Below are positions 142 to 44,242 of a stretch of DNA of 64,000 bases, piece by piece. The stretch's first letter is position 1, and each line of letters starts with the position of its first letter. The stretch spans positions 310,001-374,000 of the forward strand of contig JACEFZ010017893.1 in assembly GCA_014155875.1 (NCBI GenBank), written 5' to 3'. Under the pieces are notes generated by a model, which did no database searches, had not been told where the DNA came from, and saw only the letters and a program-made list of their open reading frames with translations. Both the position numbers and the translations under genes were made by a program. This stretch comes from Cepaea nemoralis (taxonomy: Eukaryota > Mollusca > Gastropoda > Stylommatophora > Helicidae).

Positions 142-760
<619 letters not shown>

Positions 761-7870: not shown

Positions 7871-10865
<2,995 letters not shown>

Positions 10866-16689: not shown

Positions 16690-16871
16690 AAAAATTAATA
16701 AAAGGAGCGATAACAGTGCAAAACACAATCGATTATTTATTCATGGGTTCTATTCCGGTCCTCCATTGCGCTTACTAAAAACGCGGGGCCTCCCGGTCCT
16801 TCTTCTTTATTCTTAGTATATTATGCCTCATTCCTCCATTTCCGACTCGTATACACCCTGACATACTACTC
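16690..16871. repeat. right terminus of Polinton-2
   Basis: The stretch starting ATAAAAGGAGCGATAACAG and running through TTATTCATG matches the Polinton-1 right TIR at about 37917..37970. The end reads ATACTACT, as in Polinton-1, and RTE-like LINE sequence begins immediately with CATACAGCAAAAC. The next 6 bp (CATACA) would be the target duplication. The left end is not in the window. Confidence 0.6.
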
Positions 16872-17594
16872 ATACAGCAAAACTGGTTCTGTATAGCATG
16901 TTAGCACTCTCTTTCTTATATTCATTGATAGCGACTTATTCCATAAGATACTCTTCATTTTACGAAATACGGCTTTTACTTTTCCTATTCTGCTCTTAAT
17001 CGCTTTTGTACATCTTCCATCTGATGTTATAAGTGCCCCTAGGTATGTTAAACTATCCACTTGGTTGAGAATTTCCCCTTGTATTTCTATGTCACATTTT
17101 GTTGTCCCCATTTTCTGTGATATCACCATTATTACTGTTTTCTTTATATTCAAGAAGAATCCTTTCTGTGCACTCTCTGTTACTACAATGTCCAACAATT
17201 GTTGTAGGTCTGTTGCATTATCTTCCCCCAATATTGTGTCATCTGCATAGCATATATTGTTTATATTATATCCTCCGATTAGTATTCCTGGCTTCTCTTT
17301 GATCTCTCTCATTATTACTTCGCTATATAGGGAGAAGAGATCGGGTGACAAGACACACCTCTGTCGTACTCCTAGCTTTATCTGTTCGTAACTGCCCTCT
17401 TTATTTCCCATTTTAATTGCGGCTACTTGGTTCCAGTGTATATTCTTTATTAATCTTAAATATTTCCCATCAAAGTTGATATCTTCCAACATTTTAATCA
17501 ACTCATCATGTTGTTTATCAAATGCCTTAGTATAATCTATGAAGCATAAACATATGTCTCTCTGTTTCTCTATTGACCTTTCTATTAGTGTTCG

Positions 17595-17596
<2 letters not shown>
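16872..17596 (-). pseudogene. RTE-like LINE RT, palm to thumb
   Basis: A 211-codon frame (16866..17501) and its upstream extension. RT motif B-like region RQRCVLSPDLFSLYSE has lost the usual Gly-Cys. Motif C ICYADDTIL keeps the catalytic Asp pair. FLNIKKTVIM, then YLGALITSDGRC and the thumb follow. BovB/RTE-type RTs copy their RNA at a nicked target. The frame is cut at its 3' end by Polinton-2, so it cannot be functional. Confidence 0.85.

Positions 17597-17676
<80 letters not shown>
17597..17676. repeat. (AT)n at left edge of SINE-A
   Basis: 80 bp of AT directly joining LINE RT to the SINE head. Confidence 0.95.
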
Positions 17677-17680
<4 letters not shown>

Positions 17681-17918
17681 GCTTCCTGGCCTAGAGGTTA
17701 GCGACTTTTCTCCGTAATCTCGTATACTCTCGTAAGTAACGTGACGACGGTGAGAATAGCAGTGGTTCGAATCGCGTCGGTAACTCACGGGGTATGTGAG
17801 CCGGCCGCTCAGAAAACAATGGCAAACTACTGAGCGTAATCTTGCCAAGAAATCAACAATCATCTGAAAGATGCTGATGTTGATAGCAATGTCCTGTAAG
17901 GGATATGCAAACAAAACA
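17677..17918 (+). mobile_element. SINE-A, full-length copy, tRNA-derived
   Basis: The head GCCGGCTTCCTGGCCTAGAGG contains an A-box-like TGGCCTAGAGG at 17687..17697. A near-perfect B box GGTTCGAATC lies at 17764..17773, about 67 bp later, longer than in a normal tRNA. The tRNA-unrelated body and 3' end GGATATGCAAAC follow. Transcription would be by RNA polymerase III and mobilisation by a partner LINE not identified here. The copy sits inside an RTE-like LINE and is bracketed by AT tracts that hide any target duplication. Confidence 0.85.
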
Positions 17919-17919
17919 A

Positions 17920-17945
17920 GATATATATATATATATATATATATA

Positions 17946-18014
<69 letters not shown>
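17920..18014. repeat. (AT)n at right edge of SINE-A
   Basis: About 95 bp of AT with one TC interruption, ending exactly where LINE RT sequence resumes. Confidence 0.95.
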
Positions 18015-25619: not shown

Positions 25620-26465
25620 CAATGAATTTAATAACTAGTTTTACTCCAACTGTTTTATAGATCTCCTCGTTTCTAATATCCTTTCTTGATGTATTCGTTG
25701 CTTTTCGCAGGCATTTCAAAGTAGTGATGTTTCTTTCTCCTTCTTTCACTATCATCATCAAGTGCCATTCCAGCTGGCGTAGGCGTTCATGTCTCTCCAC
25801 ATATCTAGGTCTTTGATGTTCTGGATAGTGCTGATTTCTCCATGCGACCATCTCATTCCATCCAGCATAATTGCTCTTGGTCGGCCGCTGCCTCTCTTCC
25901 CCTCGATCTTTTCAGTCGTCAGATGTTCTCCAGTGCCTCTATTCTCATCAGATGGTCAAAGAAAATTGTTTATCTCTTTCTTATGGTTGTATTTATGTTC
26001 TAGTTTCATAGCCTCTTTCAGGCAATCGTCGTTAATTATCCTGGAAGTCAAAAGAATTCACAACATTCATCTTGGGAACCACATATCTGTTGCTTCCAAT
26101 TTTTTTCTAATTTGTTCATTTACATTCGAAGATTCACTGCCATACAGCAAAATAAGTTATATATAGCACTTTAGCACTATATTTTTACATACAATGATAG
26201 TGAGATATGAAAATACTTTTCATTTTCTGAAATGCAGCTTTTGCTTGCCCTATTCTGCTCTTAATCTCTGTTGTGCACCTCCCGTCTGATGTTTAAAATG
26301 ATCCACTTGGTTAAGAATTTTCCCTTCTATTTCCATTTCACATTTTGGTTTAACATTTTTCTTTGATATCACTATTGTTACTGTTTTCGTGATATTCAAG
26401 GATAATTCTTCTTTGCACCCTCCACATAGCATATACTGTTTATAGCGCAACCTACGATTAGTATT
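25620..26465 (-). pseudogene. RTE-like LINE copy 2, 3' half
   Basis: Minus-strand RT thumb and C-terminus. LNITKTVTIVISKKN and KILNQVDHFKH match copy 1 at 17050..17200, and DIRNEEIYKTVGVKLVIKFI is the C-terminal region of RTE-type RTs. The frame is broken by several shifts. It ends abruptly at 26465, where the Polinton-1 target duplication and TIR begin. Its missing 5' half resumes at 38132. Confidence 0.85.
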
Positions 26466-26471
26466 CCCAGC
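26466..26471. repeat. left 6-bp target duplication of Polinton-1
   Basis: CCCAGC; the right copy is CAAGGC (38126..38131). The uninterrupted LINE copy 1 reads CCTGGC at this position. Both copies have drifted, but each occupies the exact six bases. Confidence 0.65.
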
Positions 26472-26864
26472 AGTAGTTATCAAAGTTGTATTCAGTTAGC
26501 ATTTTAGATGCAGCATCTTAGAAGTCAATGAGTACATTGCTATATAAAACTACACAGAGCAGGTGTTCTACGTCACATAACTGCACCTGAAATCCGTTTA
26601 TAATTTGGGCTAGATCAGGGGATATAAATGATGAATAGTCACTCCACTGTTTTTGTTGTTGTTGTGTTTACAATGTTATTGACCTTTTATTGATTTGTTT
26701 ATTTATTTTAAATCGAAAATTAAAGCTGGTCTTGGTATGTGATTGGTAAGAGGATCCACCAGCGTTATTTGAAGGTGGCAGGTTCGAAGCCCAGGCAATC
26801 GCGGTGTGTGTTTGTGTGTGTGTTTGTGGGCGTGCGCGCGACGGGCGGGGTGGTTCAAACCCAT
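26472..26864 (+). repeat. Polinton-1 left TIR
   Basis: Pairs with the reverse complement of 37743..38125 from AGTAGTTAT through ATTCAGTTAGCATTT, GTTCTACGTCACA, AAAATTAAAGCTGGTCTTGG and GTTATTTG to a G-rich end. It also contains a tRNA-like B box GGTTCGAAGC at 26781..26790. Confidence 0.88.
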
Positions 26865-26989
26865 TAAAATACACGACGTAGGTAGTAAGGTGGTTATTAT
26901 TAGTCATGGATCCTCCGAGTCCGAGTCCATTGTGCGAAAAAAAATAAAAAACCTTCCACCAAATGTCAATCAGCATCTGTGGCATCGGT

Positions 26990-28585
26990 TATAATTTAGG
27001 AGGTTCAAGGTGTGGAATGAGTTTGTTAGCTTTCTCTGCGCCAGTGTTAGCTGGCTTATCGGTTGAAGAGTTTATACCTGTGACGTCAGCTGGGGAATTC
27101 GTTGGCCTGCAAGTTTTTCCTTTGAGTGGTTCTCTTTAGGTGGTTTCTTTTGTCAGTGTTGGCTTCTGGCTCGTCTTATGTGATAGGGCGCAGACCTTAT
27201 AACGACTCATCCTTGGGTTTGCTTGCTTTTGCTTTCTTGTAGTTGATCCTTGATGAAGTTGGCTGCCTTAACTATATCTTCTTCGGTCCAGTATAATATA
27301 CTGTCAGGTAATCTGCATTCTTCGACGGGTTTGATTGTCGCATCTAGGCTGACTAGGCTTGCGTCATATTTCTGATTGAAGACTGGTTTCCACTTGAACT
27401 TATTCATCAATGCGAATGGATTGCTGGCTTCATCCTGAGGTTTTACACTTGTCTTTGGCTTGGCTCCATCATGCGTCTTTTTGCCTCCATTTTTGTGTAG
27501 TGTCTTTAGAAGCTTTTCGATGTTTTCTTTGTGGTTTTCATCGTGTGGTTTCTCTATGTTCTTTTCAGTGTCTTCTGCTGGTTTGATTTGGGTTGGAACC
27601 CTTTCAGTTTTTAGCAGTTCTCTCTCGGCTTTTATTGCTTGTAGGATCTCTTCGTTCTACTTTGTTGTCTGGATTATGTGCTCAACATCTAGTTTGATGT
27701 TTTGCTGGATTTCCTTTATTTCAGCAAGCAGCTTTTCATTGTCGCTGGTCAATGCCGGTGTTTGTAGTAGCTTGACTTGTTTCTTTAACTCGTTAGTCTG
27801 GCTTTGTAGTTGTGCTCTTTCAGCTTGCGAGATGCACGTGGCTGTCTTGCACCTCCGCATTGCTTATATAGTGTCTTTGTGGTAATGCCAATATTTAAGA
27901 CGTTTTGGATGTACGGACAGCCCAAGTATCTTGCTCCGTGCTTACCTAGGCAGTTGGCGCACCTTGTCGTGTTGTTGGGTGCTCGGAAATCCGTGTCCTG
28001 TTTGGCCAGCGGACACTCATTAAAGGCGTGGTGATCGGCAGATTTCCGTTTTACTGCGACATTTTGCTCTGCTGTGGCCGGCCCTCTGGCATCTGGAACA
28101 TTGGGTGATTCTGGTATTAATCCATCAGGTTGTTGTATTTTTGGTTTATCGATACCTGGCATGGTATCTCGCTGCCCTCAGTCGTCACCACCACCACCGT
28201 AGTATGGATCTTTGAGTATATCATGATCCTCTCCGCCTTCAAGATTCGGATGTGGTGATTCTCTTCTTGAAGCTGCTTCAGGATTTCTTCGCCTGACAGC
28301 TCTACTTAAATACGATTGACAACCCATCTGACTGTTTTTGAGTCGGTGTTTCCGATTCTGGTGTCTTTCTCCTCCCTCTTCTTCTTAGCTGTCTTAGCTC
28401 TTTGTCATTTGTGGGCTGTCGTCGTTCTTTACTGTGGTAGCTTCAGTAGTATCTGTAAGTTCAGGTACATTGTTGCAGCCCGCAGGCAGGCTCTCCACGT
28501 TGGTCTTCTTCGAGGTCTTGGCGGCTCCCACGCTGCATATCTTGTGAGTCTGTTGTTTCTTTGTGTTGGACTTGCCACGTGACAT
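26990..28585 (-). pseudogene. RH-LINE ORF1 (zinc-knuckle gag-like), copy A
   Basis: Starts at an ATG at 28585 (MSRGKSNTKK). The fullest surviving knuckle is CANCLGKHGARYLGC, near 28040. A Gln/Leu/Glu-rich coiled-coil-like frame (27657..27860) and a C-terminal piece with YWTEEDIVKAANFIKDQLQE follow. ORF1 proteins of I/LOA/Jockey-type LINEs bind element RNA in ribonucleoprotein particles. Frameshifts split it into at least four frames. Orthologous pieces are at 46440..47982 and 52030..53988. It sits just inside the Polinton-1 left TIR, so the insertion is younger than Polinton-1. Its left boundary is approximate. Confidence 0.75.
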
Positions 28586-28639
28586 TGTCCTCTCCAGTAT
28601 CAAGCAAATGCAAAAAGTCCTGGTAACCGAAGATCTACC

Positions 28640-28970
28640 ACCCGCGGGGATAATGCTAGAGTGTATCAACAGACCTTGCAGCGGTATCTGAATCGACTCT
28701 ATCAGTGCATACAGAAGTCCTTAGGCATAGTGGATATCAAGGTGCCGCCTCCGGTACAAAGACGCGAAGTCAGCAGTTTACCGGTAACAGTAGTCTAGAC
28801 CCCAGCCAACTAATACCTACTCAAATAATACCCAAGAGTCAACTAGTCGAGACAACGTCGCCGTATAAACTCAGGAGAAAGAAGAAGAAGAGTAAGATAC
28901 CTACATCCAAGTGTCTGATGGTTCGCATCACAGAAGTATTAGCATGGCGCCCATGCTAGTAAACTGCAAT
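28640..28970 (+). pseudogene. possible Polinton gene remnant, unrecognised
   Basis: A plus-strand frame reads YQQTLQRYLNRLYQCIQKS, then VPPPVQRRE, to a stop. After a frame change a basic KLRRKKKKSK stretch follows. It lies between the LINE ORF1 and the integrase relic. I do not recognise the protein. Its amphipathic character and position suggest an original Polinton gene. Confidence 0.35.
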
Positions 28971-29080
28971 AATCAAAAAGAGGTGTGGAATAATTTGCAC
29001 ATGAAGACAGTCGTGTTATGAAGAGTCAGTTTTACAGAGGGGGTTCGATTCAGGCTGGCTCAACCCAAACAACCTTTTAA

Positions 29081-29365
29081 AGGGGTTATATGCCATCGTG
29101 GACAGAAGAATTGTTTACCTTCAGCCGCATAAAACAGACCATTCCAGTGACGTATGTGCTAAAAGACGATTCGGGGGAGGAACTACAAGGTTCATTCCAC
29201 AGGGAAGAGATCCATCTAGTTGGAGATAAACAAGTGTATCGAATCGAAACAATCTATCAAAAAAGATGAAAGAGGGGTGTTAATAAAGAGTATTTAGTGA
29301 AGTGGTTAGGGTATAATTAGTCATTCAAGAGTTGGATTTCAGACCTAACCAGATACCGGGACTAA
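29081..29365 (+). pseudogene. Polinton-type integrase C-terminus with chromodomain
   Basis: Reads GYMPSWTEELFTFSRIKQT, VTYVLKDDSGEELQGSFHRE, then, after an in-frame TGA (about 29267), KEYLVKWLGYN, a TAG (29318..29320), and SFKSWISDLTRYRD with a final stop. The order is SH3-like integrase tail followed by a chromodomain (YLVKWLGY...SW). This is characteristic of Polinton/Maverick integrases, where it binds DNA or chromatin during integration. The catalytic DDE core upstream is not visible. At least two nonsense codons make it dead. It reads inward from the left TIR. Ty3/gypsy chromointegrase is the main alternative, but the TIR context favours Polinton. Confidence 0.75.
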
Positions 29366-29487
29366 AGGAAAAAGTCAAATGATCAAGCATCCTTCTCACC
29401 AAGTTCCGAGGATCACCTGCTGTTATGAAGCAGACAGGGTCCCCGAATTCTCGGACATTAGAAACCACTAAACATCTAAGGGGCAAG

Positions 29488-29507
29488 GAGGGGGGGGGGG
29501 GGGGGCA
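29488..29507 (+). repeat. poly-G run
   Basis: About 18 G in a row after AAGGA. Similar G runs occur in the hAT MITE at 44.3-44.65 kb and in the SINE at 58.48 kb. Confidence 0.95.
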
Positions 29508-29545
29508 TGTTTGCCTACATATTTTGTGGACTTGTTTTTTATTTA

Positions 29546-29643
29546 TGTTGCATATCCTTTACAAGACGTTGCAGTCAACAACAGAATTTTTTTCAGCTGC
29601 TGTTGATGTACTAGGCAAGTTCAGTAGTTTGCCATTACTTTCT
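29546..29643 (-). mobile_element. SINE-A, 3' half
   Basis: Minus-strand copy: GTTGCATATCCTTTACAAG on the plus strand through GTAGTTTGCCATTACTTTCTG, then cut by an RH-LINE. The 5' half resumes at 31106. Confidence 0.85.
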
Positions 29644-31105
29644 GCAGTCTCACCGGTGCTCTTTAACATGTATACGAGCAAAATTGCAAACCTAGAAGCA
29701 CCAGGGGTTGGAAGAATACTAACATTTGCAGATGATATTCTTGCATATAGGCAGGGGAGAGATAGGGAGAAAACAGCCCAGGAGCTACAGGCGACAGTAG
29801 ATAAAGTGATTGACTGGTGCACAGAAATGAGTGCTGTCATCCATCAGGAAAAGGCGGCTATTTCGGGTGCTCTCTGGACAACAGGATTGTGAATCATCAT
29901 GTCCCAAGCCTCGGGATAGATGGTAGAAATGTCAGCAGAGAGAACAAACTGAAGTATCTGGGGATCACATTTGACAGGAGCCTATCCTACAAGGACCATG
30001 TGGAGACGGTTGTGACAAGATCTCAAAAGGGACTCAGTGCACTTAAAACTATGGCTGCAATAGACACAGAGCAGAGAAGCTTTTCACAGTAATTGATTAT
30101 GGATTAGGACTGCTCACTGTCTCAGAGAGTCAGCTGGTGAAGTTAGAGCGCATACAGAACGAAGCTATGCGGGTCATTCTGGGATGCACCAGAGACACCC
30201 CAGTAGTCTGTATGCGTTATCAGCGACTGATAAGAGGGAAATCATGGATGGCTCAGGTGGAGGATACGATCAGACAGGTGTGCCCCTTGGAGAACATTAG
30301 GCGTGGAGAGGAGTGGAGAGGAGTGCCAGCGGAGCAGTCAGACTTGTGCAGAGTTATAATCACATTAAGCCGGGAGTGCAGGGAGTGGCCAGCAGGGGCC
30401 ACGGAAGTGGAAATCCAGCAACTAATTCAGGACAATGCTAACTCGGGTGATGTGATTATCTACACAGATGGTTCGGTGTCAAGAGGTGAGAGAAGTGGCT
30501 GGTGGTTCATAGCCAAAGCTAATGGTCGACGTTTGGTGTAGGAGAGCCTGGCATATGATACTACAACATCCAGCTTAAGAATGGGGTGGAGGCAGTCACT
30601 GTGGCTCTCCGCTGGATGGAGAATACGACACACACGCACATCGTGATTGTAACTGACTCAGAAAGCATGCTGACGAGAGTGAGGAAGAGCAGGCTTCGTA
30701 CGGAGTGGCTTGCTTCGCTTCGGAGGTCACGGATGACAAGCATCGCCTGGATCTTTTCTCCAGGGCATGTCGGTGTGCTGGGAAATGAACAGGCGGACAG
30801 ATTGACTGGCTCTGCAGAACTTGGTGGAGTATTGATACATGACAAGGCAGACGTGGTTGCGGCCTTGTGGGAGCACGTGTACACCTCGGAGGAGCTAATG
30901 GATTACCATGGTCTGGCAAGAATGAGACCGCGAGGAGTGACGAGAGGATCTGGCCGACGCTCAACGCTCAGTGGAAAGGCGAGACGGACATATAATCAGA
31001 TTGCTACTGGTACTATTAGTGTTGGAACTCTTCGCTGGCTGCTGAGGATGGGGACGAATGTCCCGAATGCTGTGATGTCGATTCCTAAATCAATCAATCA
31101 ATCAA
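29644..31105 (+). mobile_element. RH-LINE, 5'-truncated copy in SINE-A
   Basis: Begins inside RT (VLFNMYTSKIANLEAPGVGR) and ends with TCCTAAATCAATCAATCAATCAAT. Target sequence resumes with TCTGAACG. A 4-bp TCTG repeat is the only possible target duplication. Confidence 0.9.
29650..31100 (+). pseudogene. RH-LINE ORF2: RT C-terminus plus RNase H, broken
   Basis: RT motif C is FADDILAYRQGRD, near 29725, followed by VIDWCTEMSAVIHQEKAA. A frameshift precedes the thumb (NKLKYLGITFDRSLSYKDHV). The connection reads RIQNEAMRVILGCTRDTPVV. RNase H has YTDGS near 30462, VTDSESM near 30652 and GHVGVLGNEQADRLTG near 30770, so acidic residues persist, but a TAG at 30539 and a frameshift near 30580 interrupt the domain. 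RT with a C-terminal RNase H marks the I/R1/LOA group of LINEs. Confidence 0.85.
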
Positions 31106-31240
31106 TCTGAACGTCTGGTTCACGTACCCCTGTAAGTTACCAGCGCGGTGCGAACCGCTGCCGATTATCGCAGCTGCTGTTTCACCTCGTGGATTTACGG
31201 GATTACAAACACTGTCGTTGACTCCTTGGCAGGGGCACTG
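31106..31240 (-). mobile_element. SINE-A, 5' half
   Basis: Minus-strand head of the same SINE: CTGAACGTCTGGTTCACGTACCCC, then a degenerate antisense B box GTGCGAACCG, through GGGATTACAAACACTGTCG. It completes 29546..29643 with no missing body. Confidence 0.85.
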
Positions 31241-31529
31241 GCTCGCATATCAAGTAACCTAACCCCAGGAAAATTATCTATTGAATTTATATTTTAGGAT
31301 TTCTGCCACTGGTTAACTAAACGTTCGGCGGGTGTCTTAAGATACCTCACAGGTTAACCTTTGAATACCACCAAGCATAGAAATAGGCAACAATTGTCGG
31401 TGTAATGTTTGTTGTCATATGTTGATACCCAAATTGTGTCTAATATGGTCTGAGATGTTATGTAAACAACGACCTATAGGATGTACTGTGATGTTGTATT
31501 TATAGAAGCTAGTCGCTGGTATTGTCTCT
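31241..31529. other. no recognised feature
   Basis: Short AT-rich stretch downstream of the zinc-finger relic; no motif. Confidence 0.5.
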
Positions 31530-32290
31530 ACAAAGCATTTAGTGTTGGGTTTGGTGTAAAGGGCGTATATTAAACTTTCCCTGAACTAATGTCACAAAAT
31601 CGTCAAAGTCTTGTCGGTTGTTGACTATTTTGTTGACGTCTAATTTGCATGCATGGTTGGATGATACGTGAACAATATCTAAGTTCGTCCGTCTCTCTAT
31701 GTCTGAGGATTTATGATGGTTATAGTTAATTTTGAATCTATTTGTCTGACTAGTAAATAACATCACCTAATTTCTTGGTTCAGTCTACTGGTTGTACTGT
31801 ATCCGGTCGATAAAAAAATTGTAGGTAGATAAATGTCTGTGGAATATTGTGGTATGTCCTGAGGACTGTCCAGTTATCCCTATATGTCTACTGTATGTCA
31901 CTGTCACGGGTGTGTATAGTCTCTGGATCTTCAGCTAACAGTATGTCCTCTTCCTCTGCTACCAATTGATCATGCATATTGGTGTGATTCTGATTTTTAG
32001 AGGTGTGTGTAGTCGATGGTGTTTTACTTTTTCTTGATGAGGATGTAGTGTCCATATTTGATGATACGGTTGTTGTGTTCATATATGTTGATGCTGTGGG
32101 TGTCTGGTTATGTGATCTGATGTGATGTTGTAAGTTGTATCTTCTCTTGTATAAATGACCACAGATGTGCCTTGTGTTAACTTTGGTGTTGTGGATTGTA
32201 TGAATGTGACGTGTAAGACTACGGTGTTCAGTGAAGACTTGGCCACAAATAGACACAGATATACGGATTTGTTAGTAGTGGCCATGATGA
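31530..32290 (-). pseudogene. C2H2 zinc-finger protein relic in Polinton-1
   Basis: Two finger-like units: ICGQVFTEHRSLTRHIHTIH and HICGHLYKRRYNLQHHIRSH. Each keeps the second Cys and both His but has lost the first Cys. A Ser/Thr-rich tail and an acidic end (EEEDILLAEDPET) follow. A further minus-strand frame (31539..31766) contains DFDDFVTLVQGKFNI, matching KFDDFIKTVHEHDI downstream of the Polinton-2 zinc finger. Finger spacing and the ...YNLQ.HI... helix match the Polinton-2 gene. Several frameshifts are present. The role is unknown; DNA binding is inferred from the fingers. Confidence 0.6.
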
Positions 32291-33269
32291 TAGAAAAAAA
32301 ATCAAGTGATGGGGATAATGCAAAGTGAACTAAAAGCTGTTATTAAGTTTCTGTAATTGCCGACAGTTCCACACTTTAAAGTTATGGTATAAGCACTGTC
32401 TTTATATAGCATCAACGACCACGTCAAATAGCTGTGAAGAGAGCCAAACAATTTAGAGTCCATTGCCAACGTCTCCTTGTGCCAAAAGAGAGTGACAATA
32501 GCTCTTTGTACCAATATTTCTCCTTGTTAGCAAAATCACTAGCTGTAGAAAAGTTATATTTATAGGCGATATGAAATTAAAGAAGATTAAACAAGTAACA
32601 TCACATGTACATTGTAAAAGTCCACATAAAGGACTAGATTTGTTGTAGTGTAAAAAGTCTCAGAAACTATTTATGCAAAGAGACAACAGAAACAGGGACT
32701 TGTGCAACCTGACAGAGCATTTGAAAAATTAGCGATATAATGATGTTTCATTTAATACATTAAACAATCAGTGGGGATACACCATTGGTGAAATGAAAAC
32801 TTATCATGCATACCAACATTTGTGACAATCGTCCAGTTGTGTCGAGATTTCCCTGGTTAAACACAGCTCGAGAATCTGAACAGAGCTCGAGGTGCTTCTT
32901 CACGTGTTAGCAAAGTGTCAATCTATAGAAATAAATCAGAATACTTTAGTGACAAAAAGATGGAAACAATTCATATCTAAAGAAATAAGACACTTTATTG
33001 ATCAGAAGAATACCTACCCATGATACAAGACTGGTGTTTCATGAAACAATATGCAACACATCAACAAGATTAGACGATGCATAGATGTGGTGATATGACA
33101 GAATAAGAGAACCAACCTGTGTGTGCGTGAAAACGTCCACTTGTTGCCCGGAGTGAGTGGCAATATAGCAGTTGTGAAGAGCTTTCCAATGTTAGCAAAG
33201 TTTTCTATAAGACAACAAAACAAACACTTTAGCGACCAGAAGAAGGGAAACGATTTTAATTCTCTAATT
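32291..33269. other. no recognised gene; Polinton-1 interior
   Basis: Minus-strand frames at 32302..32514 and 33014..33346 have no known motif. Confidence 0.4.
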
Positions 33270-33508
33270 TTAAGTTTACGAATTATTAAACTTTTACACA
33301 ATTGTGAATATTTTAACTTTTTAAACTTTTTAAATGTTTTAAACATTTTAAACTTTGTACTACTTTAACTTTAACTTTCTGAGTAGTTTAACTTGTTAAA
33401 TTTTGTAACTTTTTAAAATAATAATTTTTTAAAACTTATTGTAATTTAATTTTGTTAACTTTTAAATTTGGTTATTTAAAAATTATTAAACTGTTTAAAC
33501 TTGATAAC
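33270..33508. repeat. AT-rich tandem array, left part
   Basis: Words such as ACTTTAACTTTCTGAGTAG and TTTTTAAACTTTT occur here and again at 34967..35430. The array is interrupted by the GAA-LINE. Confidence 0.7.
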
Positions 33509-34960
33509 TCATTGAGGTTCTTTGCTGCAGATACAATCCGTCTCCATTCGTCTCTCTGGTTGACCTTCTCTTGCCAGTCATTGATTCCAAGTGCTTGTAG
33601 GTTTCTATATATATTATCTCTCCACCATCTTCTTGGTCTGCCTCGGGGTCTACGGTCATTTATTTCTTCAGGGTAAGCGAGTTTTGTTTCCCTATTATCT
33701 TCCATTCTTTCTATATGCCCCAGCCATTGTAGTCTATTAGCCTTCATGAAACCAGTGATTAGCGGGGACTTAAACATATCATAAATGTCTTTGTTACTTC
33801 TTCTTTTCCACTCTCCACTTTGTGTATCCCTAATGGGTCCAAAGATGCGTCTTAAAACTTTGTTCTCAAAGGTTTGTAACAAGGCTTCGTCTCCTTTCGT
33901 TGTACTCCAGGTTTAAGAGCCATACAGCACAACTGGTTCTGATCAGTGTTTTGTATATTGTGATGTTGGTGTTACGAGATAGCGCATTTGATTTTAGTAG
34001 ATGTTGTAGTGCATAATATATCTTATGTCCAGAATTGATTCTAGTTTGTATTTCTTCCCTTATGATGTTGGATCAGTTGAAGATTGTACCCAGTTATTTG
34101 TATGTTTCCGTTCTTTTAATGGTCATATTATCTATTTGTATGTGGCCAGAGTTTTTATCCGTAGCTTCTCTTGAAATTACCATATATTCTGTCTTATCTT
34201 GGTTGATAACCAGCCCCATCTGTTGGGCTTTTTCCTTTAAGTGAGTCAATATTTCCAATGTCTTTTGTTCATTTTCCCCTATAATATCTATATCATCTGC
34301 ATAACCAAGCAGCTTGGATGTTCCTCCAATATCACATTCCTCCTTTACCTTCCTTACAACTTTCTCTAGAGCCAGATTGAAGAGTAGCGGCGATAGTGCA
34401 TCACCCTGTTTCAAGCCAGATGTTATTTGGAAAGGGTCTGATTTCCTGCCTTTATATGTTACTATATTATAAGTATCTTCCATGCATAGTCTGGTCATGT
34501 TGATTAACTTCCTTGGTATTCCAAATTCCTGCATAGCATTCCATAGACTATTCCTATGTACACTTATCATAAGCCTTTTTATAATCCACAAAAAATGTTA
34601 TGGAGATCTCTTTTATATTCCCAATTTTTCTCGGCTATTTGTCGTAAGATAAATATCTGATCTATTGTTGATCTGTTTTGTCTAAAACCCGCCTGGTAGT
34701 CACCTAATATGTTTTCTGAATATGGTTTTAGTCTATTTAGTAATACTGCGGATAGTATCTTATAGCTTGTGGACAGTAGTGATATTCCTCTATAATTTTC
34801 ACATTGGAACTTGTCTCCTTTCTTAAAGATAGGTATCAATAATGACCGTTTCCAGTCATGGGGTAATTCTTCTGTCCTCCAGATTTTTATTATTAGTTCG
34901 TATAACTTTAGATGTAATGCATGGCCACCTGCCTTTATAAATTCAGCAGCAATTCTATCA
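33509..34960 (-). pseudogene. GAA-LINE reverse transcriptase, copy 1
   Basis: Order from 5': AEFIKAGGHAL, IPIFKKGDKFQCENYRGISLLS, FRQNRSTIDQIFILRQI, then motif A with the catalytic-region DF.KAYDSVHR lost to a frameshift at 34580. TSGLKQGDALSPLLFNLALE is motif B and LGYADDIDIIGE motif C. GLVINQDKTEYMVI follows, then a further break, then RIFGPIRDTQSGEWKRRSN and GHIERMEDN...RPRGRPRRW. An AP endonuclease is expected upstream but absent. The clade is not assigned; RTE- or CR1-related is likely. Confidence 0.85.
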
Positions 34961-34966
34961 GCATTG
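33509..34966 (-). mobile_element. GAA-LINE copy 1, truncated at both ends
   Basis: Very similar to 35634..36892 over their shared part, but extends further 5' (to NADRIAAEFIKAGGHAL) and lacks the 3' tail. It interrupts an AT-rich array. No convincing duplication was found at its ends. Confidence 0.85.
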
Positions 34967-35430
34967 TAAAAAATGTTAAACTATTTTTTCAAATTAAAAA
35001 ATGTTTTACTGTAAATTTTTCTTAACTTCTTAAACTTGTTACTTCTTTAATTGTAACTGTCTGAATTTTTTAACTTTGAAAATTATTTACAATTTTTAAA
35101 TGTTTTAAAAACTGTTAAGTCTTTTTAAAACTTTTACTTCTTTAATTTTAACTTTCTGAATTGTTTATTTGTTAAATTGTTTTTAAAAATTGGTTAACTT
35201 TACAAAATGTGTAACTTTGTAAAACTTCTTAAACGTTTAACTTGTTTAATTTTTAAATTCTAATGTGTTTTTAATTTTTGAAAATTGTAATATTTTTAAA
35301 ACTTTTAAAACTTCTTAAACATTTTACTTCTTTAATTGTAACTTTCTGAGTTTTTAACTTTGTTAAATTTTTAATGTGTTAACTGTAAAATCATTTTGAA
35401 ATTTTTAGTTATCTGATAAGTTTTTGTCAG
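34967..35430. repeat. AT-rich tandem array, right part
   Basis: ACTTCTTTAATTGTAACT(T/G)TCTGA anchors near 35041, 35128 and 35325 give spacings of about 87 and twice 98 bp. Confidence 0.7.
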
Positions 35431-35624
35431 CACGGAGCTAGATGGTGCTAATGAATATTACACAAACCTAAATGTGTCGGTAACACTATTCAGAATATGT
35501 GATAATGTTATCCACTGTTTACCATAATGAAATACCACCATGTAAAAAAAAAGTACACGGGAACATTCTTAAACGATTGAAGCTGTGCATTCATACCATA
35601 TAATGTCTTAAGAGATAGAATAAG

Positions 35625-36901
35625 AATCGCCTTCTCTTCTTCTTCTTCTTCAGCATTCCGAGCCATTGAGGTTCTTTGCTGCAAATACAATCTGTCTCCA
35701 TTCGTCTCTCTGGTGGACCTTCTCTTGCCAGTCGTTGATTCCAAGTGCTTGTAGGTCTGTATGTATATTATCTCTCCACCGCCTTCTTGGTCTACCTCGG
35801 GGTCTACGGTCATTTATTTCCTGAGTGTAAGCGAGTTTTGTTTCCCTATTATCTTCCATTCTTTCTATATGCCCCAGCCATTGTAGTCTATTAGCCTTCA
35901 TGATACCAGTGATTAGCGGGGACTTAAACAAATCATAAATGTCTTTGTTACTTCTTCTTTTCCACTCTCCACTTTGTGTATCCCTAATGGGTCCAAAGAT
36001 GCGTCTTAAAATTTTGTTCTCAAAGGTTTGTAACAAGGCTTCGTCTCCTTTCGATGTACTCCAGGTTTCAGAGCCATACAGCACAACTGGTCTGATCAGT
36101 GTTTTGTATATTGTGATTTTGGTGTTACGAGATAGCGCCTTTGATTTCAGTAGATGTTGTAGTGCATAGTATATCTTATTTCCAGAGTTGATTCTAGTTT
36201 GTATTTCTTCCCTTATGATGTTGGAGCAGTTGAAGATTGTACCCAGGTATTTGTATGTTTCCGTTCTTTTAATGGTCATATTATCTATTTGTATGTGGCC
36301 AGAGTTTTTAGCCATTCCGTCTCTTGAAATTACCATATATTCTGTCTTATCTTGGTTGATAACCAGCCCCATCTGTTGGGCTTTTTCCTTTAAGTGAGTC
36401 AATATTTCTAATGTCTTTGTTCACTTTGCCCTATAATATCTATATCATCTGCATAACCAAGCAGGTTGGATGTTCCTCCAATATCACATTCCTCCTTTAC
36501 CTTCCTTACAACTTTCTCTAGAGCCAGATTGAAGAGTAGCGGCGATAGTGCATCACCCTGTTTCAAGCCAGATGTTATTTGGAAGGGGTCTGATTTCCTG
36601 CCTTTATATGTTACTATATTATAAGTATCTTCCATGCATAGTTTGGTCATGTTAATTAACTTCCTTGGTATTCCAAATTCCTGCATAACATTCCATAGAC
36701 TATTCCTATGGACACTATCATAAGCCTTTTTAAAATCCACAAAAATGTTATGGAGATCTCTTTTATATTCCCAATGTTTCTCGGCTATTTGTCGTAAGAT
36801 AAATATCTGATCTATTGTTGATCTGTTTTGTCTAAAACCCGCCTGGTAGTCACCTAATATGTCTTCTGAATATGGTTTTAGTCTATTTAGTTAATCGCCT
36901 T
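35625..36901 (-). mobile_element. GAA-LINE copy 2 with 9-bp TSD
   Basis: AATCGCCTT flanks the insert at 35625..35633 and 36893..36901. The 1259-bp element is 5'-truncated and ends, on its own strand, in a GAAGAAGAAGAAGAGAAG-type tail. Confidence 0.95.
35650..36892 (-). pseudogene. GAA-LINE reverse transcriptase, copy 2
   Basis: Two frames (36408..36740 and 35650..36402). Motif A is DFKKAYDSVHRNSLW, motif B GLKQGDALSPLLFN, motif C LGYADDIDII. A frameshift follows at about 36408. Then comes a 250-codon intact C-terminal part ending GRPRRRWRDNIH, WQEKVHQRDEWRQIV, AAKNLNGSEC and stop. The catalytic Asp residues are kept; the 5' truncation removes the N-terminal part. Confidence 0.9.
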
Positions 36902-37742
36902 GGTGAAGCAAAATCGAAAACATACTAAGCAATAAATAAAGATTTCAATTACAACTAGAGTGTTGAAGTCCTTCACAAAATGCAAAGAATGCCATAGCCA
37001 GACCAAAAAAAAAAAAAAAAAAAGGAAGAAAACTGTTTAGAGAAATTAGCCAGTCATAAAGAGGGAGGAAATAAACTTGAAAATCAGCTCAACGTAGCTG
37101 GTGAAACATAACGACGACATGGCGTATCACAACATCGAACTCACCTGTTGAAACCGTAACTGAATCGTCGGAGTTGAATGAATTGACACAGCAGTACATT
37201 GTGTATTTATATAACTTTTAAGCCCTGTCAGCTTTCTGGTGGTACGTCAGCGTTACCTTGGCAAAGTTGTTACACAAAACAACGTAGAGGACACTCAGTA
37301 CTAGTGGGCTGTTTGTTCCCTGACAAGTTTAAGTGTCACGCACTGGAACCTCTGAATTGTCACTTACCCTTGACAATGTTATGTTAGACAAAGGTTTACT
37401 TCAAAGATTGTTACACACAATAACCTGAATTGTCACGTAAGCGAAGGTTACGTCACGCGTTGGAAACTGTCCCCAACTGATAGCACGCACTGACAATGTC
37501 TGGTCATGCCCCATCAAACGTCGCAAGGTCGCTCCGGGGTCACACTGATATCATCCACTGAACATGTATGAACATGCATTGTCAGACGCCGCAAGGCTGC
37601 GCCGGGGTCATCAATGCTATCACGTACTGAACGTGCCTGAACATTTTACATGCGACAGGTCACGGCAAGGTCGGCCTGGCGTAGTCCTGTGTCTGCGGGT
37701 CGTGATCAATATAGCGTGACAGGTAAGAGGACTCTTAAACTC
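36902..37742. other. no gene; A-run at 37004..37023
   Basis: Contains a 20-base A run and two similar GTCGCAAGG(T/C)(C/T)GC..CCGGGGTCA stretches near 37520 and 37590, a local duplication of about 80 bp. Confidence 0.5.
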
Positions 37743-38125
37743 GGTGGGTTCTCCACCCGCCCACCCGCTGCAGGTCTGCGCGTGCGCAAACACACACACC
37801 ATGACCACCTGGGATTCGAACCTCGCCTCCAAATAACGCCGGTGAATCCTCTTTCCAATCACTTACCAAGACCAGCTTTAATTTTCAATTAAAAATTAAA
37901 TAAATAAATAAATAAAATAAATAAAAGGATGGTAACACTGCAAAAACCAGTAGAATGGTTATTCATGATTTATATCTCCTGAGCTAGCCCAATTTATATA
38001 CGGATTTCATGTGTAGTTTTGTGACGTAGAACACTTGATGTATATAGTTGTATATAGCAATGTACTCAGTGACCTCTAAGGTGCTGCGCCTGAAATGCTA
38101 ACTGAATACATATTTAATAACTACT
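37743..38125 (-). repeat. Polinton-1 right TIR
   Basis: Reverse-complement partner of 26472..26864, ending ATAACTACT. Includes GGGATTCGAACCTC (37811..37824, antisense B box) and (AAAT)n at 37894..37924. Confidence 0.88.
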
Positions 38126-38131
38126 CAAGGC
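38126..38131. repeat. right 6-bp target duplication of Polinton-1
   Basis: CAAGGC, directly followed by TTCTCTTTGATC of the interrupted LINE. Confidence 0.65.
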
Positions 38132-39519
38132 TTCTCTTTGATCTCTTTCATGGCTACTTTGCTATAGAAGGCATAGAGATCCGGTGACAAAACACATCTG
38201 TAATTCTCCTAGCTGTATTTGTTCATACTTGCCCTCTTTATTTCCCATTTTAATTGCTGCTACTTGGTTACAGTAAATATTGTTTATTATTCTGAGATCG
38301 TTCCTATCAAAGTTGACATCTTCCAACATTTTAGTCAGGTTATCATGTTTTACTTTATCAAATGCCTTAGTATAATCTATGAAGCACAAATATGTCTTTC
38401 TGTGTCTCTATTAATCTTTCAATTAGTGGTCGTGATGTTTGCATTGTTTGTACCCTTTCCTTCCACAAATCCTTCACCAATTTCCATTATTTTTCTTTCT
38501 TGTTCTTCTCATTATAATTCTGAGTATAAGCTAAGTGACATTATTTATGGGGTTAATTGTACGAAAGTCTTCGCATTCAATTGCTCCTGGTCTTTTTGGT
38601 ATAGCTATAAATATAGATTTCAGCATATCACTTCGTGAATATCCACTGCTGTAAATTTAATTCAACATGTTAGTTAATATATTTACTCCATATTTTCCCA
38701 GTACTTTTAATTCTTCTATTGTGATTCCATCTGGCCCAGCTGTTTTTCATTTCTTCATATGTTTGACAGCGTGAGACTTCTTTTACTAATAGAATAAATG
38801 GACCTTCTAAGTTACTTTCTTATGTTAATTTTTCCCTTTCTCCATCAAATAATTCTCTTATGAACTAATTACACCTTGTAATTATAGCCTCTTCCTCCAA
38901 AAGTATCTGTCCTATTTTTGATTTGAAACACACTGTATTTACTCTTATTTTTCTTCCTGTGAGCTCACTGATTTGTCTGTGCATATATTTTGTATATTTA
39001 ATAGAATTTACTTCAATTTTCTTGCACTGCTAGTTTAACATACTTTCTTTTTGCATTCACACATTTATCTTTTCTTTTTATTATTCATCTTATCATACTC
39101 TTGTCATGTTTACTCTGTTTTATTTTGTGCACCAACCTTAAGATTTCTTCAGTCATCTTTTTTTTCCCTGAGCTTTTTGGCTTTTCTCCGTGGGAGTTCT
39201 TTGCCTGTTTGATTAATGAAGTCCCTTAACATTTCCCATTGTTAATTTGCACTCTGTATTTTAGCTATTGTATTTTTCACAGTCACTCTGTATAGTTCTT
39301 GAATTGCTTTATCTGCTTTCAGATCATCTTTATTAAGTCTCATATTATTAGTCACTGTTTTCCCTCTCTTCAATCTTGTTTTCATTTGTCCACAAAGTGG
39401 TACATGATTATTATTACAGTCAGCACCATGCATTGTCTTAACGCATTCACACATTTATATATCTAATATTAATAAGTATGTAGTCAATTTGATTGTGTAT
39501 TTTTTTTTATCGGGGCTTT

Positions 39520-39940
39520 GTTGTCTCTGGAGCTGTCTCGGCTGGCAAAGATTAGTTTCATCTTCGTGCAAGGGCATGCGGGAGTACAAGGAAATGAGCG
39601 GGCTCACAAGCTCGCGGGTAAGGCTACTGTGGAGGGCGGACGCGCCATGGACCAGGCTGATATTCTTAATTCTCTAGGAGAAGTAAGACTTTTGCGAGAA
39701 CCAAGTGATGACTGTGAATCTACAACCATTGTCAGACTGCGAGAACAGCAAATTAAAAGAGGTGTTGTCCAAACAAGAACACTACGCAGGAAGCCAAAGA
39801 AAATTGATAAACCAGCACAGAACTTGTGTCGTGAGCCGCTACAGTGCTGCGGGATTTGCTAAGGAGGGGATCCAAGCACTTATGGACTGAAAGGTTCGAT
39901 GTGCAATGAGGATGATCTGTCGACTGACTAACTAACTTAA
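39520..39940 (+). mobile_element. 421-bp RNase H-LINE fragment with 9-bp TSD
   Basis: CGGGGCTTT at 39511..39519 and 39941..39949. The insert encodes FIFVQGHAGVQGNERAHKLAG, the last RNase H motif, and a C-terminal tail, ending with GACTGACTAACTAACTTAA. It belongs to a different family from RH-LINE (other tail and protein). Confidence 0.9.
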
Positions 39941-40127
39941 CGGGGCTTTTCCACGTGTTATGTCGTCTTTTATGGTGTTTAATCCAGGTGTTTCCAATTA
40001 TCATATCATTGATATTTGCCAATTCTACTAGTTTCACTCCTCTTTCATTTCATGTACCTAAACCATAATTTCCCACTACATCCTCATTTTTTCCCGTTCA
40101 GACTTTTGCATTAAAATCTCATAGTCT

Positions 40128-40230
40128 TCTTCTTCTTCAGCATTCCGAGCCATTGAGGTTCTTTGCTGCAGATACAAAGCCGTCTCCATTCGCCTCTCTG
40201 GTTGACCTTCTCTTGCCAATCGCTAGTATT
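40128..40230 (-). mobile_element. 103-bp GAA-LINE 3' end in RTE-like LINE
   Basis: CTTCTTCTTCTTCAGCATTCC through CTTCTCTTGCCA replaces nothing in the host LINE, which continues with TAGTATTATT as at 22570. TAGT is the probable short duplication. The 5' truncation is almost identical to that at 24005. Confidence 0.85.
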
Positions 40231-40744
40231 ATTCTTATTTCTTGTGATTTAATTTGAGACATTGGCATTTAAACTTCATCGTAAAAGGGTTGTATTTCTT
40301 CGTCATTACTACTTGTTGTTGGTGTTTATACTTGTATAATATTTATATCTATTGGTTTTCCTTTCATGTTGACCATAGCAACTCTATCTGAAATACGCCA
40401 GTAACCATTAATTGACTTGGATGTTTTTTGTTTTCTTTAAAATCAAATAGTAGTCATACTCCTTTCTCGTGCGTATCCCCTCCAGAATAAACTATTGTGT
40501 GTTTGTCGGTTATAATTTTTCCTGATCCCTTATATCTTATCTCTCTTATGCCTAGAATATTCATTTTCATGCTTTTCATTTCTTTTTTAACATTGCTCAT
40601 CTTCCCCAACTCATTTAATGTTCTAACATTCCATGTTCCTATTTTAAATTTATTTCCCATTTTAAATTTATCGTTACGATTTTGCCATCAAGTACAGTTG
40701 AAATTTTCCCTTCCTTAAGTAATGGATTATTATGGCCAAAACTC

Positions 40745-42294: not shown

Positions 42295-42409
<115 letters not shown>

Positions 42410-43780: not shown

Positions 43781-44002
43781 TTCTAAGCAGATAGCTAAAA
43801 CTGTAAAGTTTACACCCCATAACTAACACCACACGTCTCATCATCATCGTGTGATATGCCGGTAAGCGTCAAGTGACAAGCTATCCAGACAGCTATCTCT
43901 CTACTTTCCCCTTGCTCTTTTCCCAGCAATTGTCATTAAGTTTTCCAGTTAATTTTCCTTCAACGTGTCCTCAAAAATATTGACTGTCTATACTTTTTTT
44001 TT

Positions 44003-44242
44003 TAAAGTTGCATATCCATTACAGGGCGTTGCAGTCAACACCAGCATGTTTCAGCTGTTGTTGATGTTCTTGGCAAGATTACGCTCAGTAGTTTGCCATT
44101 GCTTTCTGAGCGACCGGCTCACATACCCCTTAAGTAACCAAAGAGACGCGATCCGCTGCCGAATCTCGCGCAGCTGTGTTCCTCACGTGGATATAAGGGA
44201 TTATGGAGAAAGTAGTTAACACCCACGACAGGAAGACCGACT
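44003..44242 (-). mobile_element. SINE-A, nearly full-length copy
   Basis: Plus strand GTTGCATATCCATTACAGG through GTAGTTTGCCATTGCTTTCTG and GACCGGCTCACATACCCC to a head GACAGGAAGACCG. The B box is degenerate. The head abuts a hAT MITE. Confidence 0.85.

What the first reader, a model, noticed from the sequence alone, without database searches (positions are those of the whole stretch)
26466..38131. An 11.65-kb Polinton/Maverick-like element precisely splitting an RTE-like LINE
Two inverted stretches of about 390 bp (26472..26864 and 37743..38125) start AGTAGTTAT and end ATAACTACT. Outside them the two halves of one minus-strand LINE continue as if never interrupted. The 6 bp at the insertion site (CCTGGC in the uninterrupted LINE copy near 17290) appear on both sides as CCCAGC and CAAGGC. 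Inside is an integrase/chromodomain relic. Long TIRs, AG-type ends, 6-bp duplication and this integrase together are the Polinton signature. The LINE interruption gives an independent proof of the boundaries.
Basis: partly seen in the sequence, partly recalled or inferred. Interest (0 to 1): 0.87.

Follow-up and report, generated by a model that had tools for sequence, protein, structure and literature searches.

The report
Decayed Polinton fossil inside a LINE
An old, broken virus-like transposon of the Polinton/Maverick kind lies exactly inside an older retrotransposon, so its edges can be read to the base; the fossil itself is ordinary, but its host genome also holds many much younger relatives.

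Summary
The inverted repeats are real (280/342 identical, E 6e-79; about 340 bp solid, not 390). They begin AGTAGT and end ACTACT. A coding LINE is interrupted between two adjacent codons (residues 102|103 of an uninterrupted copy), and the joined site has exactly 6 bp more than that copy. The two candidate 6-bp duplications agree at only 3 of 6 bases, by itself no better than chance.

The Polinton/Maverick reading is supported. The relic at 28605-29365 matches an intact rve+chromodomain integrase ORF of the same genome (85% over 62 aa). A zinc-finger ORF relic (minus strand, about 31463-32271) is shared with that family and with a third element. The one young copy read end to end has AGT/ACT ends, a perfect CAAGGG duplication, adenoviral-type protease and ATPase ORFs, and ORFs that look capsid-like by eye.

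The window copy is a fossil: no polymerase or capsid match was found in 30 pieces scanned, the integrase core is missing, and about 6.45 kb of 11.65 kb is later insertion. It is a new member of a known kind. Unresolved: whether the integrase relic is the element's own.

The parts
26472..26811 (+). left terminal inverted repeat, starts AGTAGTTAT
37792..38125 (-). right terminal inverted repeat, ends ATAACTACT
26466..26471 (.). left copy of the presumed 6-bp target duplication, CCCAGC (uninterrupted LINE has CCTGGC)
38126..38131 (.). right copy of the presumed 6-bp target duplication, CAAGGC
28605..28913 (+). integrase-gene relic, part 1: region before the catalytic core
   Evidence: 70.5% over 325 columns to L042 2762-2452; translated pieces
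28895..29365 (+). integrase-gene relic, part 2: segment after the core, C-terminal domain and chromodomain, broken by stops and a frame change; the catalytic core between parts 1 and 2 is missing
   Evidence: 78.3% over 451 columns, to 29344
31463..32271 (-). relic of a zinc-finger ORF shared with two other elements of the host (perhaps the start of the polymerase gene; inferred)
   Evidence: 59% DNA over 675 columns at 31582-32247; weaker collinear pieces down to about 31463; zf-C2H2 E 0.0011, below the curated cut-off
27210..28604 (-). nested fragment with a gag-like zinc-knuckle ORF (no curated Pfam match; named by eye); similar sequence recurs in other fetched loci (L022, L023, L024, L025); not part of the element
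29535..31205 (+). nested repeat of about 230 bp, itself split at 29644/31106 by a LINE with RT and RNase H matches (both just under the curated cut-offs); the same repeat is unsplit at 43995-44235
33510..36895 (-). nested block: two LINE copies 96% alike (33510-34744 and 35664-36895) with repeats between them; K2P 0.037, against 0.20 for the TIRs
26141..26471 (-). left flank: downstream part of the interrupted LINE (from the YADD region of its RT onward)
38126..40612 (-). right flank: upstream part of the interrupted LINE, itself with small later insertions

Best explanation
This is a fossil Polinton/Maverick. Its integrase once joined a linear TIR-ended DNA into a LINE by staggered cuts about 6 bp apart, splitting the LINE's reverse-transcriptase frame just before the YADD motif. 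Two gene relics remain: an integrase gene read from the left end and a zinc-finger ORF read from the right end, facing each other. Afterwards the element lost its middle (integrase core, capsid genes, ATPase, polymerase body), and a gag-like fragment, a short repeat with a LINE in it, and two LINE copies landed inside. Shown: ends, boundaries, 6-bp excess, the two gene relics, relatives in the same genome, and that the inner LINE pair is less diverged than the TIRs. Inferred: the staggered cut, self-replication through a protein-primed polymerase, the order of deletions, and that the zinc-finger ORF began a polymerase gene. The confidence is for the Polinton reading; that the integrase relic is the element's own is a separate, less certain claim (see the first rival).
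For: TIRs E 6e-79. Codon-exact interruption and 6-bp excess. Ends as printed for Mavericks. The TIR's inner part recurs in the host: 14 further partial matches, 5 of them only in the TG-rich tail; the other 9 are 8 distinct loci (two are 99.2% alike), of which 3 show a partner TIR within about 20 kb: C19819 4.2 kb, C25095 15.7 kb, C21269 9.5 kb. Of 12 fossil termini looked at, the window's two included, 7 read AGTAGT, 2 AATAGT, 3 neither. The integrase piece has 149 other scored places at E 3.6e-28 or better (1304 first-look candidates, 150 scored); the intact ORF carries rve (9.8e-12) and Chromo (4.7e-9), with Peptidase_C5 and Adeno_IVa2 ORFs in the same copy. The zinc-finger relic matches that copy (38% over 125 aa, E 7e-18) and the 15.7-kb element (E 1.8e-8). 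Its distance to its own end is 2.3 kb, 2.6 kb and, after subtracting the nested LINE block, 2.5 kb (arithmetic mine).
Against: The two duplications agree at only 3 of 6 bases, and for the three fossil relatives with both ends read I saw no 6-bp duplication. The window TIR does not resemble the young family's TIR beyond AGTAGT. In the young copy integrase and zinc-finger ORF are on the same strand, in the window on opposite strands. 0 of 30 distinct stop-free pieces matched a polymerase or capsid family. The integrase pieces found nothing in the 15.7-kb, 4.2-kb or 9.5-kb relatives. The 62-aa piece alone found nothing in Pfam, PDB, the protein collection, viral contigs or phage records, and its fold search was uninformative (pLDDT 62). 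The left LINE half is somewhat more diverged than the right. Size is below the printed range of intact vertebrate elements.
Confidence: 0.93

Rival explanations
1. The integrase relic is not the element's own: it is a later nested or rearranged fragment of the young, abundant Polinton family, lying in an older TIR element that is itself most likely a Polinton derivative. (This concerns the relic's origin and largely overlaps with the Polinton reading; its odds are not exclusive of it.)
For: Integrase DNA is 70-78% like the young family while the zinc-finger region is 59%; the relic is on the strand opposite to that expected from the young copy's layout; its left edge abuts another inserted fragment; no integrase was found in the three paired-TIR relatives.
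Against: Similarity to the young family ends with the gene (about 29344-29365) and does not run on into the next gene at the threshold used; modules on different strands facing inward are the usual layout of vertebrate Mavericks, with exceptions (PMC8097293 section 7).
Confidence: 0.2
2. A Ginger-type or other cut-and-paste transposon with an integrase-like transposase.
For: TIRs and an rve-type enzyme; Ginger2 enzymes tend to group with Polinton integrases (PMC2836005 passages).
Against: Ginger1 has 4-bp CCGG/CCGT duplications, TGT ends and 2.6-7 kb (Ginger2's duplications I did not read up). Here there are 6 bp and AGT ends, and the intact relative sits among adenoviral-type protease and ATPase ORFs.
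Confidence: 0.02
3. Two unrelated dispersed repeats that happen to lie inverted, flanking LINE pieces from two copies.
For: Six other inverted pairs of 150 bp or more (E 1e-20 or better) exist in this window; the LINE halves differ in divergence; five of the eight TIR-related loci showed no partner TIR in the stretches read.
Against: The break is codon-exact in one LINE frame, with a 6-bp excess and AGTAGT at both edges; partner TIRs occur at 3 other loci.
Confidence: 0.02
4. A chromovirus (Ty3/Gypsy) remnant that supplied the integrase and chromodomain.
For: Chromoviruses also end their integrase with a chromodomain (search listing with start of abstracts).
Against: No direct-repeat pair flanks the relic in the window self-comparison; the matching intact ORF lies among protease and ATPase ORFs.
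Confidence: 0.01

Closest known systems
Polinton/Maverick elements (vertebrate Mavericks, PMC8097293; passages and section 7 seen)
   Same: (AGT)2//(ACT)2 ends, TIR of a few hundred bp, 6-bp spacing, integrase gene read inward
   Different: decayed copy of 11.65 kb, about 6.45 kb of it later insertion; polymerase, capsid, ATPase and protease not found in it
Adintoviruses (PMC11071296, preprint; passages seen)
   Same: rve integrase with C-terminal chromodomain
   Different: defined by polymerase and hexon types, neither of which could be identified in the window copy
Maverick burst in the snail Potamopyrgus antipodarum (PMC12596079; passages seen)
   Same: about 13-kb Maverick with hundreds of additional copies, like the young family found here
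   Different: another genome; the window element is an old relative, not part of a burst
Ginger transposons (PMC2836005; passages seen)
   Same: TIRs and a Gypsy-integrase-like enzyme
   Different: Ginger1: 4-bp duplications, TGT ends, 2.6-7 kb

Membership tests
Polinton/Maverick | terminal inverted repeats of tens to about 1400 bp | tested here: met
   about 340 bp, 82%, E 6e-79; printed range 46-1447 bp
Polinton/Maverick | end motif such as (AGT)2//(ACT)2 | tested here: met
   AGTAGTTAT / ATAACTACT at the LINE-defined edges (motif)
Polinton/Maverick | 6-bp target-site duplication | tested here: inconclusive
   exactly 6 extra bp against the uninterrupted LINE copy, but the two copies agree at 3 of 6; a young relative has a perfect CAAGGG duplication; three fossil relatives show none
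Polinton/Maverick | rve integrase, here with C-terminal chromodomain | tested here: met
   relic pieces 85% (62 aa) and 58% (40 aa) identical to an intact rve+Chromo ORF; the catalytic core is missing in the window; that the relic is the element's own is likely, not shown
[quoted passage not shown]
   no polymerase match in 30 distinct pieces; a zinc-finger ORF relic shared with other elements may be its start, not proven; genome search for PF03175 did not complete
Polinton/Maverick | capsid genes, packaging ATPase, adenoviral-type protease | tested here: inconclusive
   not found in the decayed window copy; in the young copy Peptidase_C5 1.3e-5 and Adeno_IVa2 7.2e-5; its capsid-like ORFs were named by eye and had no Pfam match, and the largest no meaningful PDB match
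Polinton/Maverick | size 12.7-24.6 kb when intact (vertebrate elements) | tested here: inconclusive
   11.65 kb with about 6.45 kb of nested insertion, so about 5.2 kb remain; a decayed copy cannot decide this
Ginger | 4-bp CCGG/CCGT target duplication and TGT ends (Ginger1) | tested here: not met
   6-bp excess and AGT ends (definition)

The most novel reading that the evidence does not exclude
The host harbours several old Polinton lineages with this TIR type and one recently amplified lineage (149 other scored integrase places) that codes for integrase, adenoviral-type protease, ATPase, a Bcl-2-like protein and seemingly capsid proteins but, in the one copy read end to end, no recognisable DNA polymerase. 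It would be a capsid-coding Polinton that multiplies on a polymerase supplied in trans, and the window fossil would be one of its older relatives.
Probability: 0.3. Interest if true: 0.6.

Novelty: new member of a known kind. Interest (0 to 1): 0.35.

Why it matters
The LINE gives base-exact edges for a Polinton so decayed that its own genes would hardly reveal it, and the nesting gives a relative order of events (LINE, then Polinton, then inner LINEs). The relatives reached from it show old and much younger Polintons side by side in one genome, which helps in asking whether such elements persist by transposition or by repeated infection. The fossil itself is an ordinary member of a known kind.

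Tried and rejected
Family look-ups with the 62-aa integrase piece alone failed: Pfam, PDB, protein collection, viral contigs, phage records; the 41-aa piece in Pfam gave one match below cut-off, taken as noise. Two degenerate DNA patterns in viral contigs gave 9 and 2 contigs, none of which I judged an integrase. Fold prediction of the 62-aa piece was poor and its searches gave no match at E 0.001. Rfam found nothing in the window and ARAGORN nothing in the element; the B-box-like GGTTCGAANCCCAGG in both TIRs (42) was not taken further. The zinc-finger piece found no relative in the protein collection. Ginger, chromovirus and chance inverted repeats were considered and disfavoured. The capsid naming in the young copy rests on eye and recall, not on a family match.
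Full report
Observation. The two stretches are true inverted repeats: 26472-26811 pairs with 37792-38125 at 280/342 identities, E 6e-79. Over 345 alignment columns identity is 82.5% and K2P 0.20; past about column 350 it drops to about 50%. The outer ends are AGTAGTTAT and ATAACTACT.

Boundaries. A second copy of the same minus-strand LINE lies at 16869-17594 as an open frame with a reverse-transcriptase match (RVT_1 3.6e-20). Its residues through 102 match window 38407-38128 (the alignment runs four codons on into the TIR) and residue 103 onward resumes at 26467, so the element sits between two neighbouring codons, just before the YADD motif. The joined flanks carry exactly 6 bp more than the uninterrupted copy. 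The flanking hexamers CCCAGC and CAAGGC each differ from CCTGGC at two positions and agree with each other at three of six; alone that is no better than chance (P about 0.17), and for two copies that each drifted 8-12% so poor an agreement has a probability of about 0.05-0.13. I therefore rest the duplication on its length and place. The LINE halves have K2P 0.25 on the left and 0.17-0.19 on the right against the second copy, a weak point against one common LINE.

Contents. Between the TIRs are two decayed gene relics and three blocks of later insertion. On the plus strand, 28605-29365 matches an integrase gene: a region before the core (70% DNA identity over 325 columns), then, with the catalytic core missing, the segment after the core, the C-terminal domain and a chromodomain (78% over 451 columns), with two in-frame stops before the terminal one in its last 95 codons. 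On the minus strand, 32271 down to about 31463 matches a zinc-finger ORF (38% over 125 aa, E 7e-18; 59% DNA over 675 columns; weaker collinear pieces). The later insertions are a gag-like fragment (27210-28604), a short repeat split by a LINE (29535-31205) and two LINE copies 96% alike (33510-36895). They add up to about 6.45 kb (my sum), leaving about 5.2 kb. The inner LINE pair differs by K2P 0.037, the TIRs by 0.20, which is consistent with the order LINE, Polinton, inner LINEs. None of 30 distinct stop-free pieces of the interior matched a polymerase or capsid family.

Relatives found through the TIR. The host assembly is 3.47 Gb in 26,579 contigs. The left TIR has 16 matches: itself, its partner and 14 partial ones, none of which covers its first 143 bases in that search; a finer comparison extends some further out (to base 99 on L016, and to base 25 of the right TIR on L018). 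The tool skips very common words, so this is not a copy count. Five of the 14 touch only the TG-rich tail. The other nine are eight distinct loci (C21269 and C10210 are 99.2% alike). Three have a partner TIR within the roughly 20 kb read: C19819:1671309-1675507 (4.2 kb, TIRs 181/219 identical), C25095:105882-121546 (15.7 kb, inner TIR parts 64/95 identical, E 1e-7) and C21269:95944-105460 (9.5 kb, TIRs 75% over 458 columns). For the other five none was found. Of 12 fossil termini looked at, the window's two included, 7 read AGTAGT, 2 AATAGT and 3 neither; the ends on C10210 (a near-duplicate) and C5663 were not counted. None of the three paired relatives shows a 6-bp duplication that I can recognise. 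The 15.7-kb element carries the same zinc-finger ORF (E 1.8e-8), 2.6 kb from its end and pointing inward, as in the window once the nested LINE block is subtracted (2.5 kb). The integrase pieces were not found in any of the three.

The young family. The 62-aa integrase piece has 150 scored places of 1304 first-look candidates, the window included; identities of the others are 82-87%, no matched piece has a stop inside, and their open frames run from 93 to 524 aa, often 357. The copy on C22655:232890-244993 (12.1 kb) reads CAAGGG|AGTAGTATAGG ... CCTATACTACTACT|CAAGGG, a perfect 6-bp duplication. Its ORFs include an rve+Chromo integrase, an adenovirus-type endoprotease, an Adeno_IVa2-like ATPase and a two-zinc-finger ORF, a Bcl-2 family ORF (PF00452 1.9e-12), and ORFs that look like capsid proteins by eye but had no Pfam match (the largest no meaningful PDB match). 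None of the 14 ORFs scanned matched a DNA polymerase. Ten other fetched copies are 82-99% identical to it over 1.7-3.2 kb. For the second copy whose surroundings I fetched (C26339), the far end was not located. The only organism named among the 120 listed of 3439 protein relatives is the snail Littorina saxatilis (58%); a snail host is my inference. A 13-kb Maverick burst in the snail Potamopyrgus antipodarum is in print (PMC12596079, passages), so such bursts are not new.

Reading. I take the window element to be a fossil Polinton/Maverick. The motif, TIR length, 6-bp excess and integrase fit the printed description of vertebrate Mavericks (PMC8097293, passages and section 7); another paper gives 5-6 bp duplications for these elements (PMC8547959, passages). 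Two points stay open. First, integrase and zinc-finger relics face each other in the window but lie on one strand in the young copy. Modules on different strands facing inward are the usual vertebrate layout, with same-strand exceptions, but an inversion or a nested integrase fragment is possible; that similarity to the young family stops at the end of the gene speaks against a nested piece. Second, the window's TIR does not resemble the young family's beyond AGTAGT; the C21269 element's end (AGTAGTATAG...) looks intermediate by eye. The literature searches were not aimed at this locus, and I make no claim that it is unreported.

Noticed in passing
G000 C22655:232890-244993 (L042, L051, L053) and the places: Abundant young Polinton family in the host: 149 other scored integrase places; the one copy read has protease, ATPase and capsid-like ORFs and a perfect 6-bp duplication.
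   Followed up: partly
L051:745-1272 (+): Bcl-2 family ORF (PF00452 1.9e-12) inside the young Polinton, on the strand opposite to its integrase and protease ORFs.
   Followed up: partly
G000 C22655:232890-244993: No DNA polymerase match among 14 scanned ORFs of this copy.
   Followed up: partly
window 26781-26795 (+) and 37808-37822 (-): GGTTCGAANCCCAGG, like a tRNA/Pol III B box (name from recall), in the inner part of both TIRs and, by eye, in some relatives' TIRs.
   Followed up: no
TIRs of L014, L024, L030, L032: TGACGTCA-like and TATA-like stretches recur in TIRs of the relatives; a possible promoter, by eye only.
   Followed up: no
window 29535-29644 + 31106-31205, 43995-44235, 17682-17910: A dispersed repeat of about 230 bp; inside the element it is split by a LINE, with a 4-bp overlap at the junction read from the coordinates.
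   Followed up: partly
window 661-757, 1334-1435, 8483-8576, 17596-17676, 17921-18014, 42295-42407: Long perfect or near-perfect dinucleotide arrays (GA/TC, AT), up to 113 bp.
   Followed up: no
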